From a virus, in IMG/VR virus record IMGVR_UViG_3300006919_000001, positions 1 to 64,000 of that record: a DNA stretch of 64,000 nucleotides. One strand, written 5' to 3'. The notes beneath the pieces are model-generated. The model was not told the DNA's origin. It did not search any database and worked only from the letters and a program-made list of their open reading frames with translations. Of this stretch, positions 20,370-34,644 are shown piece after piece. The number at the start of each line of letters is the position of its first letter. The first letter of the stretch is position 1. A program made the position numbers and the translations under genes.

Positions 20370-20903
20370 TTATTTCTTTATTAGTATTCCGTTAATCTTA
20401 CCTTCAACCATCCCTGCAATATATTCATCAGGGGTAGTTCCATTCACAAGTCCATTTAATTTTCTAGACTTATCTTGACATGCCCAATATAAAACATCCA
20501 GTGCATTAAAATTCTTTTCTGCAAGTATAAATGCCCGCTTTAATTTTATCCAAGCCTCATCTGTTTCAAAGCAAGTCTCCAATGCCTTCTCTGTTAATTT
20601 AACTTCTACATCTTCATTCCCTACCCTAAGGTTATACTTGCCAACATTTTTTGAAGCTTGTCTTCTTAGTTCGGACTTAAAAGTACCCTCATAAAGTTTA
20701 TACTCTAATTTAGCTTCAGCCATCCTAGCCTCCACCTCAGATTTTAATAATCCAATTCTTGCAACGGCAGTTGATATCGTGGTATGTTCTCCAAAAATAT
20801 TCGAAGAATCAATTCTAGTTAAGTCATCAATGTTGATATTGCTATCTAAATTATCATGCTCTAAAACTATTGCAGTGTCTCCAATGTGTATTGTGTATTT
20901 CAT
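20370..20903 (-). CDS. hypothetical protein coupled to the sigma factor
   Basis: 177 aa, beginning MKYTIHIGDTAIVLEHDN. The middle is a long charged helix (about 47-85, SEVEARMAEAKLEYKLYEG), then a small beta part and helical end. Its ATG overlaps the sigma-factor stop by 4 nt. No domain recognised. Confidence 0.6.
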   Translation of the reverse strand: MKYTIHIGDTAIVLEHDNLDSNINIDDLTRIDSSNIFGEHTTISTAVARIGLLKSEVEARMAEAKLEYKLYEGTFKSELRRQASKNVGKYNLRVGNEDVEVKLTEKALETCFETDEAWIKLKRAFILAEKNFNALDVLYWACQDKSRKLNGLVNGTTPDEYIAGMVEGKINGILIKK

Positions 20904-21436
20904 TTTAAATATATTTTTCTAAGTTCTCTTATTGCTATTCTTTTTCTACTCTTTATTGTTCCCAATGGAACTCCTAATACCACACTTGCCTCAAGTTCGC
21001 TTAGCCCCCGAAAGTATAGTGCATTCAAAACACTTTGATATGGTAATCTTAATGACCTTATGTGGTGGTGTATAAAAGTTTTATCCAACTCTTTTTCCAC
21101 TGGTGCTTCTAGGTGAAAATTATAATCCTGATTGTCTATAGAATCTTCTCTGAAATTCCTCAGATTAAAAGACCTTTGAATATCAATGGTTTTATTCTTT
21201 ACTATTTTTAACATCCAAGTATATAACCTTCCAGCCTTTGGATTATATTTATCTCTATTCTCCCAAATCTTAATAAATGATTCCTGCATAGCATCGGAGG
21301 ATAGTGTGTGGTCTTTTAGAATACCATAGGCTGTCTTATAAAGCTGATTATAATAATTCTTGTATAATATACTCATTGCCTTTTCAGGCTCGTTAGAGAG
21401 CTTTAAAGCGAGGGACTCTTCCATGTCTACTTTCAT
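20900..21436 (-). CDS. ECF-type RNA polymerase sigma factor
   Basis: 178 aa with only regions sigma-2 and sigma-4, as in ECF sigma factors. Region 2 is LYKTAYGILKDHTLSSDAMQESFIKIWENRDKY (about 32-64) with GRLYTWMLKIVKNKTID (region 2.4). Region 4 is LPYQSVLNALYFRGLSELEASVVLGVPLGTIKSRKRIAIREL (about 130-172). It should redirect host RNA polymerase to phage promoters, perhaps those of the virion genes. The upstream 37-aa membrane peptide and the downstream unknown gene both overlap it by 4 nt. Confidence 0.92.
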   Translation of the reverse strand: MKVDMEESLALKLSNEPEKAMSILYKNYYNQLYKTAYGILKDHTLSSDAMQESFIKIWENRDKYNPKAGRLYTWMLKIVKNKTIDIQRSFNLRNFREDSIDNQDYNFHLEAPVEKELDKTFIHHHIRSLRLPYQSVLNALYFRGLSELEASVVLGVPLGTIKSRKRIAIRELRKIYLK

Positions 21437-21560: not shown

Positions 21561-21649
21561 TTTCAAGGAGAGGGTTCGAACCTCCAAGAATATTTATAAT
21601 ATATCCGAACCCTTTAGAGCTCTACCTTTACCAGTTTGGCTACCTTGAT
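21561..21649 (-). tRNA. class II tRNA-like gene, abnormal anticodon loop
   Basis: The cloverleaf is recognisable: acceptor TCAAGG pairs with CCTTGA, a 3-bp D stem (GCC/GGT) holds a CTGG-bearing loop, a long variable arm (GGATAT/ATATTC) and a T arm (GGAGG-TTCGAAC-CCTCT). The long variable arm makes it Leu/Ser-like. The anticodon arm reads GAGCT-CTAAAG-GGTTC: the loop has six bases, one short of normal; a one-base-longer CTTAAAG would be a Leu-TAA loop. It may be a decayed or unusual tRNA-Leu. Confidence 0.6.
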
Positions 21650-28353: not shown

Positions 28354-28771
28354 AACCTTTTTCCCCCCTATCTGCTTTAGTTACTTCATCAATAAATGAA
28401 ACCTCAGATGGTATCATAAAGTATGGAATTATTTGAGCAACTCCTTGCCCTTTTTTTATTACCTGAGTGTCACTTGAAAAGTTATATAATTTAACTCCCA
28501 AGTCTCCGCGGTATCCATTATCAATAATTCCCAAGTGTGGTTGTAATCCTTTCTTGAATCCCAACCCAGACCTTGGTTCTATTCTGAACCAATATCCCGG
28601 AGTTATATATCCCAATTTTAAACCCACCGATACTACTGCCGAACATCCAGCTTCGATTAATACATCCTCTACTGAGAATAGGTCATAACCAGCATCTCCA
28701 GTTGATTTGCAATCATGGTTCTTTTCTGGAAGCATAGCCTCCTCATGTGTTTTTACAAATTTTATTTCCAT
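28334..28771 (-). CDS. dut: dUTP diphosphatase
   Basis: 145 aa with all five trimeric dUTPase motifs: DAGYDL (about 27), EPRSGLG (about 66), LGIIDNGYRGDLGV (about 80-93), GQGVAQII and the C-terminal RGEKGFGSS. It hydrolyses dUTP to dUMP, keeping uracil out of DNA. It overlaps folE by one base and the TGT-like gene by 20 nt. Confidence 0.96.
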   Translation of the reverse strand: MEIKFVKTHEEAMLPEKNHDCKSTGDAGYDLFSVEDVLIEAGCSAVVSVGLKLGYITPGYWFRIEPRSGLGFKKGLQPHLGIIDNGYRGDLGVKLYNFSSDTQVIKKGQGVAQIIPYFMIPSEVSFIDEVTKADRGEKGFGSSDK

Positions 28772-29478
28772 TATCTTAAGTTATTTGCTAATTCAATATT
28801 CTTATAAAATTCACTTCTTGCCATTGGCTCAGTAAAGAAAGCTCCAGTTAATTTTGCTGTTTGCATTGAAGCACCTTGATGTCCAACACCCCTACAACTT
28901 ACGCAATTATGTGTTGCCGAAATGTGTACGGCTACTCCTAAATTACCTTCGCAAATTTCCTCTACTGCGTTATGAATAGCGACTGTCAATTGCTCTTGTA
29001 TAGCACCTCTTCTTCCGAAGTGTTCAACTATTCTATTTAGCTTTGATAAGCCTACTACCATTCCTTCGCTTGATGCAATGTAGGCTACGCTTACTTTTCC
29101 CATAATAGTTTGGTGGTGGTGGCTACATTGAGATACCAATGGAATATTACTTTCCTGCACAATAGCTCCATACCCATCACTTGGGAATGCAGTTATTTTA
29201 CTCATGTTTTCATAACGTCCCTTCCATAGGTCATTCACATAAGCTTTGGCCACTCTGCGTGGAGTGTCATTTGAATTTGGATCATTCTTCCAATCACAAC
29301 CTAATGCGTCTAAGAAATATCCATATGCGACCGCTGCATTGTTTATGATTACCTCTTTTTCTTCGGTTGATAATACTGCCTTTTTCCCCTCCGCTTTTTG
29401 CTTTTCTGCCAACTGCGTTGAAATTCCATTGGAGTGGCCAATTTTGGCTATCTCTAGGTTTAATACTTTTTCACTCAT
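28771..29478 (-). CDS. folE: GTP cyclohydrolase I
   Basis: 235 aa. CSHHHQTIMGKVSVAYI (zinc Cys and His), GLSKLNRIVEHFGRR, QEQLT and ISATHNCVSCRGVGHQGA match GTP cyclohydrolase I. It makes dihydroneopterin triphosphate, the first step toward preQ0, and feeds QueD. The N-terminal 40 residues are a charged extension. A GATC lies at 29280. Confidence 0.96.
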   Translation of the reverse strand: MSEKVLNLEIAKIGHSNGISTQLAEKQKAEGKKAVLSTEEKEVIINNAAVAYGYFLDALGCDWKNDPNSNDTPRRVAKAYVNDLWKGRYENMSKITAFPSDGYGAIVQESNIPLVSQCSHHHQTIMGKVSVAYIASSEGMVVGLSKLNRIVEHFGRRGAIQEQLTVAIHNAVEEICEGNLGVAVHISATHNCVSCRGVGHQGASMQTAKLTGAFFTEPMARSEFYKNIELANNLR

Positions 29479-29543: not shown

Positions 29544-30347
29544 TTAAAATGTATCGTATAAAAAGCTTCTGCTCTTAGCTCTTGCAAATGCATATAGGGC
29601 CGCGTGTATTTTTAACTCTGCATAGGTATCCAATTCTGGATGCTCTTTTCTAGCATGAGCCAAATTGATAGCATATTGAAAAATTGAATAATCCACAGTA
29701 TCCGGTCGAACGAATTTAAAGGTCTCCACATTTTGGCAACCTAGTAAATGAACCTTCTTTCCACACTGTCTAGCATAGTTCATCATTTTCAATAACTCTT
29801 CCCTATTGGTATGCCATGCTCTCTCCTGAGCTAAACCTCCAATTGCTAAAGTTGGATACATTTCGCTTTCACATAAATCTTTCCAATATTGAAATCCTTG
29901 GTGTAGTTTAAATACTGGAGTAGGATACATGCCTGTAACATCAAACACCTCTTGCCTGCAATAATTGGATGGACACAATAGGTCTTCCGATTTTCTAAAG
30001 TATTCATTATCCAATTCAAATATCATATGATACTCTGCAATGGAACACATTTTTAAAAATTTCCTTTTCATCTTTTCACAAAGCTTTTCGAAATCTTCCT
30101 TGTCCAGTGTTTGTTGCTTTTTAAATAAAGTAAAACCACCAGAATCCAAAAATAATCTATCCTTGCCAACCATGTCATAAATCTCTTTCGTTACCACAAA
30201 TGGCATATCTACTGTTGAGATTAATACACTATTTGTAAAGGAGTCAAGTAGAGCTGGAAGTACTTTTCTCCACGTACCCTTTTCTCCGCACGAATAGATA
30301 AGTCCGGCACCTAGTCCGTATACTAATTTGTCCTGCTCTTTACTCAT
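29544..30347 (-). CDS. TGT-like base-exchange enzyme, DpdA-type (copy 2)
   Basis: 267 aa. FLDSGGFTLFKK (about 66-77) is the DSGGF base-binding block of tRNA-guanine transglycosylases. FELDNEYF, VFKLHQGFQYW, LAIGGLAQERAW and VHLLGCQNVETF with DTVDYSIF (candidate nucleophile Asp, about 216) follow in TGT order. It lacks the Cys-rich zinc site of tRNA-modifying TGT, as do DNA-acting DpdA proteins. Its presence beside preQ0 synthesis genes argues for insertion of the modified base into phage DNA. It overlaps the ParB-like gene by 8 nt. Confidence 0.8.
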   Translation of the reverse strand: MSKEQDKLVYGLGAGLIYSCGEKGTWRKVLPALLDSFTNSVLISTVDMPFVVTKEIYDMVGKDRLFLDSGGFTLFKKQQTLDKEDFEKLCEKMKRKFLKMCSIAEYHMIFELDNEYFRKSEDLLCPSNYCRQEVFDVTGMYPTPVFKLHQGFQYWKDLCESEMYPTLAIGGLAQERAWHTNREELLKMMNYARQCGKKVHLLGCQNVETFKFVRPDTVDYSIFQYAINLAHARKEHPELDTYAELKIHAALYAFARAKSRSFLYDTF

Positions 30348-30768
30348 CTTTTTTTCCTTTTAAAAGTTCCTCTAAATCTTTCTTATTGTTACTGAATGAG
30401 GTGAGTCCTAATTCTCCCATGAGCTCATCTGGATTCTCAGACATTAGCCTGTCAATTTCAGCATAGTTCCATTGGGAATATTCTCCCACTCTATTGTCAG
30501 CAATTACAAAACCCTTTATCTGGTCTTCCGTTAATCCACTTATTGCAAGCACATCAATTTCGCCTTCATATTTTAGAAGCTTCAAAGCTTTCAACCTTGT
30601 GTGTCCAGCTAGTATCATTAGCTTGTCGGTAACCACTATTGGATTGATATATCCGTAGGCCTCAATTGACTTGGCAACCACTTTTGCAGATTTATTATTT
30701 CTACGTGGATTCCTTCCATAAGGGACAAGGTCGTTTATATCTACCTTTATTAATTTTTTCTCCATCAT
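30340..30768 (-). CDS. ParB/sulfiredoxin-fold protein
   Basis: 142 aa. INDLVPYGRNPRRNNKSA, IVVTDKLMILAGHTRLKALKLL (about 45-66, the GHTR box) and FVIADNRVGEYSQWN are the ParB N-terminal domain without its HTH. Such stand-alone domains are common next to phage DNA-modification genes and may act as a nuclease or NTP-binding partner. It leads the operon from the non-coding region at 30769-31073. Confidence 0.8.
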   Translation of the reverse strand: MMEKKLIKVDINDLVPYGRNPRRNNKSAKVVAKSIEAYGYINPIVVTDKLMILAGHTRLKALKLLKYEGEIDVLAISGLTEDQIKGFVIADNRVGEYSQWNYAEIDRLMSENPDELMGELGLTSFSNNKKDLEELLKGKKDE

Positions 30769-30800: not shown

Positions 30801-30871
30801 CCGTCGGTGTGGGAATCGAACCCACGGTCTTTTACTGTACTGTAAATGCTCTACCTTTGAGCTATCCTCCG
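30801..30871 (-). tRNA. tRNA-like gene with degenerate acceptor and anticodon arms
   Basis: D arm GCTC-AAAGGTA-GAGC and T arm GTGGG-TTCGATT-CCCAC are intact. The acceptor CGGAGGA against ACCGACG leaves two adjacent G-A mismatches and one A-A. The anticodon arm TTTAC-AGTACA-GTAAA closes to a six-base loop without the invariant U33; GTA (Tyr) would be the central triplet. It may be a decaying tRNA or a tRNA-like structure. Confidence 0.5.
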
Positions 30872-30888
30872 TTTTGTAGCTGCGATTT

Positions 30889-31030
30889 AAAAAAGATCGA
30901 ACTTTAGAAAATTTAGCTACATTTTGTGGTCAAAAAAGATCGTTTTACATTTTTTACAAAATATATTTTTATCAAATCCAGCTTTTTCAAGCGCGATTTC
31001 GATCTTTTCGATCTTAAAATCGATCTTTTT
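30889..31030. repeat. cluster of five GATC-centred repeats in AT-rich DNA
   Basis: Two copies of AAAAAAGATCG (30889-30899, 30932-30942) face three of CGATCTTtt type (31000-31008, 31009-31016, 31021-31030). GATC positions are 30895, 30938, 31001, 31010 and 31022. Between them is a very AT-rich stretch (30943-30980). The arrangement suits protein-binding iterons of an origin or an operator; opposed copies could also fold into hairpins. The region 30872-31073 has no convincing gene. Confidence 0.75.
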
Positions 31031-31073
31031 AAATCCGTATGTCGAAATGCGTGAACCGTTAATTACTAACTAG

Positions 31074-31862
31074 TTACACTTCTCTCTGGTCTTCAAAGGC
31101 AATAATGTGTGGCCTCCATGTCATACGATATCCGTTATCCCTTACCCAATCAAATACCAATGGGTATGATTTGAATAATGATTCCCTAGAGTCGCCTGCA
31201 GGCATGAACCAAACCTTACCACTTGGTGCCTCTATGCAATCGAGAAAATATAATATCTCATCAAGTGCATCCTCATCTTTACCATCCCACACTGGTTTGA
31301 TATGAAAGTCTTTATGGTAATTGATTGACTTTGAAATCGCATCCACATTAAGCCTAAACTTATTGTGTTGTCTAATCATTTTCTCATCCGTAATTTTTCC
31401 CTTGGGAGTTTCCACTCCAAGCACCGGAACACTATTACTAAACTTTGGACTAATAGATAATAAATCAATAGGATAATCAGTTTCAAGAAAATGACTACCC
31501 TCAGTTTCGATTGTAATAAAAATTCCATTATCATTTGCAAAATGTGTTAATTCATTTACCAGCTTAGGCCACATTGTCGGGCTTCCGCCTGTAAGCATCA
31601 TCTCCTTGATATGTGGATTCTTTTTATAAGCTTCCACTATATCATCAAAAGAGTAGAGCCCCTTGTCCGGATGAATGCTCGTGTACCATGAATCACACCA
31701 ACCGCCTTCTCCAAAAAAGCATCTATGTGTACATCCGGTGGTCCTGATTACCACAGTTGGATAACCTGCCCTACTACCCTCTGATTGTACCGCGGTATAA
31801 ATCTCAACAATTCCTTGCCTTTTTGATTTGTCCTCCTCGGACATTCTTTTTATTTTTCCCAT
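31074..31862 (-). CDS. queE: 7-carboxy-7-deazaguanine synthase, radical SAM
   Basis: 262 aa. The radical-SAM cysteines are in TTGCTHRCFFGEGGWCDSWYT (about 42-62), where a short insertion separates the second and third Cys from the usual CxxxCxxC spacing. AVQSEGSRAGYPTVVIR, MLTGGSPT and SISPKFSNS match QueE. It makes CDG from 6-carboxytetrahydropterin. I kept the ATG at 31862; an ATG six codons in is possible. Confidence 0.92.
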   Translation of the reverse strand: MGKIKRMSEEDKSKRQGIVEIYTAVQSEGSRAGYPTVVIRTTGCTHRCFFGEGGWCDSWYTSIHPDKGLYSFDDIVEAYKKNPHIKEMMLTGGSPTMWPKLVNELTHFANDNGIFITIETEGSHFLETDYPIDLLSISPKFSNSVPVLGVETPKGKITDEKMIRQHNKFRLNVDAISKSINYHKDFHIKPVWDGKDEDALDEILYFLDCIEAPSGKVWFMPAGDSRESLFKSYPLVFDWVRDNGYRMTWRPHIIAFEDQREV

Positions 31863-32778: not shown

Positions 32779-33663
32779 TTAAAAGTTAAAATTATATTTT
32801 TTTCTTTTATACTTGGAAGATTGAGCCCCCTCTCCTCGTAAGCCTTTTAATAGCTTTACTAAAAATTGTGCATTTGAAATTGTATCGGCCAATGCCCGGT
32901 GCGCACCCTTTAAGGTTAAACCAACTTCATTGGCACAAACTCCTAATGCAAAACTTGATAATTCAAACCATCTTAATCTGGCCCATTCTAATGTATCAAT
33001 CATTTGAGTGTCCGAAATTACTTTATGTAGGTTTGCTCCGTTTTTTTCAAATAGCTTTTCTAGAAATGGATTATCAAATTTCTTTATATTATGACCAGCC
33101 AATATCGGCTTGCTATTTCCCACGGTGTGTTTTTTAATCATAGTTTGAATCAACTCAAATGCTTCTTTTATATCTACACCTTCTTCAACCATAAGCTCTC
33201 TTGAAATACCTGTTACTTCTAAAGCTTGTGGATTATAAGATTTGTCAAAATACAATTTTGCAATTGAGCCTAGGTCTTCTCTTTCCTCTAATTGGAGGTA
33301 AGTTTCATAATCAATAATACTTCCATTTGCCTCCATCCATATGTAGAATGTTTTAATATCCTCCACCAATGGCTCTAAATTCTTTAAAGTAATCATGTGT
33401 CCATTATACTCCAATATATTTAATCCAGTCTCAGTGTCTTTTTCCTTCAACATTTTAAATAATTCCCTTGCTTCTCTAATTGGCTCTTCTTCCACCATTG
33501 TTAAATTAAGCCAAGGTTTAATCAATGTGCTAAATTCATCTGCTATTTCTAATGTTTCTAAATCAATAGCAACGATTGCTATTTCTGTAATTTGGTTGTG
33601 CGAGGAACTAAACCCTCCAGTCTCTAAATCATAGACTAAAATCTTCTTATAAGGTGATATCAT
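32779..33663 (-). CDS. DnaQ-like 3'-5' exonuclease
   Basis: 294 aa. DEDDh exonuclease motifs: VYDLETGGF (about 10-18), AGHNIKKFDNPFLE (about 190-203) and GAHRALADTISN (about 256-267). A long insertion at about 55-150 separates motif I from II. The C-terminal tail is basic. It could be the proofreading subunit of the split DnaE polymerase, which has no exonuclease domain of its own. Confidence 0.88.
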   Translation of the reverse strand: MISPYKKILVYDLETGGFSSSHNQITEIAIVAIDLETLEIADEFSTLIKPWLNLTMVEEEPIREARELFKMLKEKDTETGLNILEYNGHMITLKNLEPLVEDIKTFYIWMEANGSIIDYETYLQLEEREDLGSIAKLYFDKSYNPQALEVTGISRELMVEEGVDIKEAFELIQTMIKKHTVGNSKPILAGHNIKKFDNPFLEKLFEKNGANLHKVISDTQMIDTLEWARLRWFELSSFALGVCANEVGLTLKGAHRALADTISNAQFLVKLLKGLRGEGAQSSKYKRKKYNFNF

Positions 33664-34612: not shown

Positions 34613-34644
34613 TAAAGATAAAGCTTATATCTCTACGAACCTAC
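34613..34644 (-). promoter_or_regulatory. promoter, GTAGGTTCGTA class
   Basis: The minus strand has GTAGGTTCGTA, 13 nt, TATCTTTA. It lies 70 nt before the gene at 34304-34543. The rest of the spacer 34544-34842 holds only AT-rich sequence and the terminator at 34788. Confidence 0.8.

What the first reader, a model, noticed from the sequence alone, without database searches (positions are those of the whole stretch)
30889..31030. Non-coding GATC iteron cluster: possible origin or operator
Five GATC-centred copies of AAAAGATCG, two in one direction and three in the other, flank AT-rich DNA, in a genome that otherwise shuns GATC. Such iterons beside an AT-rich stretch are typical for origins or regulator binding. 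The cluster sits between the ParB-like gene and queE, so a ParB-like or phage-encoded protein may bind there.
Basis: partly seen in the sequence, partly recalled or inferred. Interest (0 to 1): 0.72.

Follow-up and report, generated by a model that had tools for sequence, protein, structure and literature searches.

The report
GATC repeat cluster in phage operon
A phage that has purged the sequence GATC from almost its whole genome keeps five copies in one short untranslated gap inside its DNA-modification operon; the cluster is real, but the evidence points to an acquired seam between gene blocks, perhaps doubling as a binding site or RNA element, rather than to a replication origin.

Summary
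The gap has five GATC sites in 131 bp: four exact AAAAGATCG (two per strand) plus one 7/9 copy. GATC is strongly avoided genome-wide (16 found, 207 expected in 83,395 bp), and this is the only sampled place in the genome with a 9-mer repeated four times in 202 bp.

The interpretation as a ParB-bound origin or operator is not supported. The phage is a Cbastvirus relative. The gap lies inside a 7-deazaguanine DNA-modification operon: a tRNA-like element, a ParB-like gene and a DpdA-like gene sit between queE and folE, which in phage phiST are 16 bp apart. The ParB-like gene is a fixed partner of the DpdA-like gene in 12 other contigs, none with the repeats upstream. No GC-skew switch or phage-type promoter motif lies in the gap.

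Unexpectedly, 30885-30916 matches (30/32) the coding sequence of a DpdA-like gene of phiST, which does not avoid GATC (0 of 5000 shuffles as good). Best reading: a mosaic seam from GATC-tolerant DNA, not yet purged and read through as operon RNA (0.45). A true GATC-site array (operator, origin or P1-pac-like) remains possible (0.30), as does an RNA/antisense element (0.12).

The parts
30884..31035 (.). GATC-repeat region; its two ends (30884-30908 and 31012-31035) form an imperfect inverted repeat of about 25 nt
30891..30899 (+). AAAAGATCG copy 1 (exact)
30934..30942 (+). AAAAGATCG copy 2 (exact)
31000..31008 (-). AAAAGATCG copy 3 (exact)
31009..31017 (-). degenerate copy, TTAAGATCG (7/9), GATC at 31010-31013
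31021..31029 (-). AAAAGATCG copy 4 (exact)
30885..30916 (+). 32-bp match (30/32) to the coding strand of a DpdA-like gene (gp042) of Cellulophaga phage phiST; RNA made from the operon's direction (- strand) would be antisense to it
30875..30921 (-). predicted RNA hairpin: 7-bp stem TGTAGCT/AGCTACA around a 33-nt loop that largely coincides with the 32-bp match
   Evidence: z = -3.6; region chosen after the match was seen
30801..30871 (-). tRNA-like element (Rfam tRNA, 37.5 bits) with several mispaired acceptor positions and a 6-nt anticodon loop; not called by ARAGORN
30340..30768 (-). ParB-like gene (ParB_N only, 142 aa), partner of the DpdA-like gene
29544..30347 (-). DpdA-like (queuine tRNA-ribosyltransferase-related) gene
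31074..31862 (-). queE, upstream neighbour of the gap
28771..29478 (-). folE, next to queE in phiST and here separated from it by the inserted block

Best explanation
The gap is an untranslated, operon-internal mosaic seam. In the lineage of this Cbastvirus-like phage, a block holding a tRNA-like element, a ParB-like gene and a second DpdA-like gene came to lie between queE and folE of the 7-deazaguanine DNA-modification operon. The gap on its queE side includes DNA from a source that does not avoid GATC, at least one piece of it shared with phiST-type phages. It has kept its GATC sites because the insertion is recent, because the phage's DNA is probably modified and so less exposed to restriction, or both. 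It is transcribed through as part of the operon and has no demonstrated role in replication. Shown: the sites, the avoidance, the difference from phiST gene order, the 32-bp match, and the lack of the repeats in relatives. Inferred: the direction of transfer, the recent age, read-through transcription, and the DNA modification that tolerates the sites.
For: phiST has queE and folE 16 bp apart (phi13:1 likewise), and none of the roughly 80 loci found with QueE has ParB/DpdA directly after queE. Segment 30885-30916 matches phiST gp042 at 30/32, with the lowest E-value among the listed phage matches of the gap (4e-4 in 2.3 Gb). No match as good came from 5000 shuffles or 4160 reversed windows of this genome. 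Its orientation is opposite to the collinear matches between the two genomes, so it is not ordinary synteny. phiST does not avoid GATC (429 against 464 expected), and clusters of five GATC in such a span do occur in genomes that do not avoid it. Eight of the nine GATC sites in the window lie in the que operon. Phage-type promoter motifs flank the operon at 34620 and 26222, with none in the gap.
Against: Foreign origin explains GATC sites in general but not a 9-mer repeated four times (1 of 3000 shuffles) nor the helical phasing (p = 0.016). Both differences from phiST in the 32-bp match fall on the two end bases of the 9-mer and give AAAAGATCG, which hints at selection for the motif. Apart from the 32-bp piece, no source for the rest of the gap was found.
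Confidence: 0.45

Rival explanations
1. The repeats are a real protein-binding array kept by selection: an operator, a replication origin, or a packaging site that works like the P1 pac site, with GATC-bearing repeats at both ends of an AT-rich middle.
For: Repeat number exceeds chance and is unique in the genome. The sites face the same side of the helix (R = 0.93, p = 0.016). They are retained against strong GATC avoidance. The layout of 2+3 repeats over 142 bp resembles P1 pac, 161 bp with seven TGATCA/G (PMC10028697).
Against: It lies mid-operon between biosynthetic genes. The terminase large-subunit gene lies about 41.5 kb away, and the primase/helicase-like gene is at 80.8-82.7 kb. No skew change (weak test), no Dam-type methyltransferase found, and no repeats upstream of ParB in 12 relatives.
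Confidence: 0.3
2. The gap acts as RNA. The operon transcript carries a hairpin whose loop is antisense to the DpdA-like mRNA of phiST-type phages, so a co-infecting rival could lose its DNA modification; or the hairpin and tRNA-like element serve processing of the operon's own mRNA.
For: 32-bp match in antisense orientation. Loop bracketed by a 7-bp stem (z = -3.6). A tRNA-like element follows directly. No phage-type promoter motif in the gap, consistent with read-through.
Against: Only one significant match, with two mismatches. The target lies inside the gene, not at its start. The hairpin region was picked after the match was seen. No homologues for covariation. Over the whole gap the RNA fold is only modestly better than shuffles (z = -2.25).
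Confidence: 0.12
3. The gap is ordinary AT-rich DNA, and the repeats, the phasing and the phiST match are coincidences picked from many possible patterns.
For: Each test was made after seeing the pattern. AT-rich DNA gives good chance matches (a plasmid hit at E = 4e-3). phiST and Larrie also have windows with four-fold 9-mers.
Against: Three separate statistics are each unlikely by chance.
Confidence: 0.13

Closest known systems
Bacteriophage P1 pac site
   Same: GATC-bearing repeats over a stretch of about 150 bp (P1: 161 bp, seven TGATCA/G; PMC10028697), grouped at its two ends (the grouping in P1 is from general knowledge)
   Different: Motif is AAAAGATCG and not TGATCR; five sites; far from the terminase genes; no Dam-type methyltransferase found
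Iteron or GATC-rich plasmid-type origins (for example P1 oriR; general knowledge)
   Same: Short repeats beside an AT-rich stretch
   Different: No initiator gene adjacent; repeats in both orientations with unequal spacing (43, 63, 9, 12 bp); mid-operon; no skew change
7-deazaguanine DNA-modification cassettes of phages (FolE, QueD, QueE, QueC, DpdA; PMC6884629)
   Same: All four preQ0-synthesis genes plus DpdA-like genes are present
   Different: Two DpdA-like genes; one is paired with a ParB-like gene and sits between queE and folE behind the GATC gap
parS/ParB centromeres
   Same: Adjacent gene carries a ParB_N domain
   Different: Only the ParB_N domain matched, and the gene pairs with a DpdA-like gene in the relatives examined

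Membership tests
Replication origin with iterons | Repeated short sites clustered beside an AT-rich stretch | tested here: met
Replication origin with iterons | Initiator or replication gene next to the repeats | tested here: not met
   Neighbours are queE, a tRNA-like element, ParB-like and DpdA-like genes
Replication origin with iterons | Change of strand composition at the site | tested here: not met
   GC skew stays negative across the window; weak test, since almost all genes lie on one strand
Replication origin with iterons | Initiation of replication at the site | not testable with these tools
   Needs replication-intermediate mapping
P1-type pac site | Several GATC-bearing repeats in a region of about 160 bp | tested here: met
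   Two at the left, three at the right within 131 bp
P1-type pac site | Lies in or near the packaging (terminase small subunit) gene | tested here: not met
   Terminase large subunit at record 72512-73777, about 41.5 kb away; the small subunit itself was not identified, only presumed beside it
P1-type pac site | Dam methylation of the sites | tested here: inconclusive
   No match to PF02086, PF01555 or PF05869 in the record; a host Dam is not excluded
ParB-parS system | ParB with a DNA-binding domain beyond ParB_N | tested here: not met
   Only ParB_N matched in Pfam, below its cut-off; matches include the N-terminal part of DNA methyltransferases in PHROGs and PADLOC
ParB-parS system | Sites conserved next to the parB gene in relatives | tested here: not met
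   No AAAAGATCG upstream of ParB in 12 relatives
[quoted passage not shown]
   Pfam hits for folE, queC and PTPS (queD) and radical SAM (queE, assigned by similarity to phiST QueE); DpdA-like by PHROG 887, E = 5e-12
Phage 7-deazaguanine modification cassette | Modified guanine present in the phage DNA | not testable with these tools
   Needs mass spectrometry of virion DNA

The most novel reading that the evidence does not exclude
The operon of one phage carries a structured RNA whose loop is antisense to the DNA-modification enzyme gene of a related rival phage, so that during co-infection the rival loses its protective base and is cut by host enzymes.
Probability: 0.05. Interest if true: 0.85.

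Novelty: new member of a known kind. Interest (0 to 1): 0.36.

Why it matters
If the seam reading is right, GATC sites mark which pieces of a restriction-purged phage genome arrived late, which helps to date modular exchange in DNA-modification operons. If the repeats are a selected binding array, they would be a site valuable enough to keep against strong counter-selection. The ParB-like/DpdA-like pairing, recurring in 13 contigs with this one, is in itself a testable lead for how DpdA enzymes find their DNA targets.

Tried and rejected
Hidden gene in the gap: a 50-codon open frame on the - strand (31069-30917) has no ATG, GTG or TTG start, no relatives in phages or plasmids and no Pfam or PHROG family; the + strand frame has no convincing relative either. 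CRISPR array: no repeat unit of suitable length, and only one match to another phage is significant. A second match, 30969-30989 to phiST (20/21), is within the range of shuffles, so it is not used. Promoter in the gap: no sigma-70-type site and no copy of the phage-type promoter motif. The 21-base core of the phiST match was not found in viral contigs. Kin of a virus record are not drawn by the genome search. A relaxed ARAGORN run gave too many spurious tRNAs to use. The whole genome was not available as a file, so the rest of the record was fetched as a stretch. Solved structures: no hit for the ParB-like protein or the DpdA-like alignment.

Full report
What was checked. The window is the first 64,000 bases of an 83,395-bp virus record. 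Five GATC sites lie at 30895, 30938, 31001, 31010 and 31022. Four sit in exact AAAAGATCG, two per strand, and the fifth in TTAAGATCG. The 9-mer occurs nowhere else in the record. GATC is the most avoided tetranucleotide of the window, 9 found against 154 expected, and 16 against 207 in the whole record. Sixteen randomly placed sites never gave five within 131 bp in 200,000 trials. The repetition is a separate oddity: 1 of 3000 dinucleotide shuffles of the gap reaches four copies of a 9-mer, and no other sampled part of this genome does. The GATC centres fall on one face of the helix (R = 0.93, p = 0.016).

What surrounds it. Nearly all genes run on the - strand. The gap follows queE and precedes a tRNA-like element, a ParB-like gene and a DpdA-like gene, then folE; queD, queC and a second gene distantly related to phiST gp042 are near by. 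That gp042 and this second gene are DpdA-like rests on motifs that I read as TGT-like and on their company with que genes, not on a family hit, since PHROG 19058 has no function assigned. The terminase is about 69% identical to those of Cellulophaga phages phiST, phi13:1 and phi19:2 and Tenacibaculum phage Larrie; phiST, phi13:1 and Larrie are recorded as Cbastvirus. In phiST queE and folE are 16 bp apart, so the gap and the genes up to folE form a block absent there. A recurrent - strand motif, TGTAGGTT, then about 20 bases, then TATCTTTR, occurs in many non-coding gaps. Clear copies at 34620 and 26222 bracket the operon and none lies between them. That it is a promoter is inference from its position and its likeness to the Bacteroidetes -7 element (TAnnTTTG, general knowledge).

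Avoidance is a trait of the individual phage. Larrie has 1 GATC against 153 expected, phiST 429 against 464. QueE-related contigs range from mild depletion to no depletion for the most part. The restriction explanation for avoidance is inference. Phage 9g, which carries a 7-deazaguanine base, resists many restriction enzymes including BamHI, whose site contains GATC (PMC5567051); whether this phage's DNA is modified was not testable.

Conservation. The DpdA-like gene has a ParB-like gene closely upstream in 12 other contigs, including Campylobacter phage CC_R7 and a Clostridia metagenome-assembled contig. None has AAAAGATCG in the 300 bp upstream of ParB. None of about 80 QueE-related loci has five GATC within 250 bp downstream of queE; the most is four, in L076. 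The one contig identical to this phage (10,783 bp, 100%) ends at 30913, inside the gap. So the exact gene order has no independent relative here, and conservation of the whole gap remains untested.

The unexpected match. Positions 30885-30916 match phiST 32795-32826, inside gp042, at 30 of 32 positions. The same match is in phi13:1 and phi19:2. Shuffles of the gap (0 of 5000) and reversed windows of this genome (0 of 4160) never reach its score. The orientation is the reverse of the collinear matches between the two genomes, so RNA made in the direction of the operon would be antisense to gp042. Both mismatches fall on the first and last base of the 9-mer. The segment is bracketed by a 7-bp inverted repeat, and the predicted hairpin is better than 199 of 200 shuffles, but that region was chosen after seeing the match.

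Weighing. Seam DNA from a GATC-tolerant source accounts for the sites, the gene-order difference, the phiST piece and the lack of conservation; it does not account for the four-fold 9-mer or its phasing. A selected array accounts for those but has no supporting context: biosynthetic neighbours, no skew change (a weak test here), no phage Dam found, and a ParB-like protein that appears to be a DpdA partner. P1 pac (161 bp with seven TGATCA/G, PMC10028697) is the closest working analogue, but the location next to the packaging genes was tested and not met. I place the seam at 0.45, the array at 0.30, an RNA role at 0.12 and coincidence at 0.13.

Noticed in passing
window 34620, 26222, 21926, 721 (- strand); record positions 61478-66500 and 80777: A recurrent - strand motif (TGTAGGTT, about 20 bases, TATCTTTR) in non-coding gaps looks like a phage-type promoter; the phage also encodes a sigma-factor-like protein (20900-21436) and a single-subunit RNA polymerase (record 77209-79527).
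   Followed up: partly
window 29544-30768: A ParB-like gene closely upstream of a DpdA-like gene recurs in 12 other contigs; the ParB-like domain resembles the N-terminal domain of DNA methyltransferases, suggesting a targeting partner for the modification enzyme.
   Followed up: partly
window 30801-30871: tRNA-like element with mispaired acceptor positions and a 6-nt anticodon loop next to que genes and a TGT-like enzyme; other tRNA-like T-arms occur at 21585 and at record position 74436, and in phiST and Larrie.
   Followed up: partly
Larrie record ON950054 position 66210 (L099 21210): Larrie's only GATC lies in a non-coding gap at the 3' end of a tRNA-like sequence; Larrie also has no CCGG and almost no GGCC.
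   Followed up: no
L098 16676-17000; L096 151-430: Larrie (TTAACAAAA) and phiST (AATGGTTTG) each have a four-fold 9-mer cluster in a largely non-coding stretch; these could be candidate origins.
   Followed up: no
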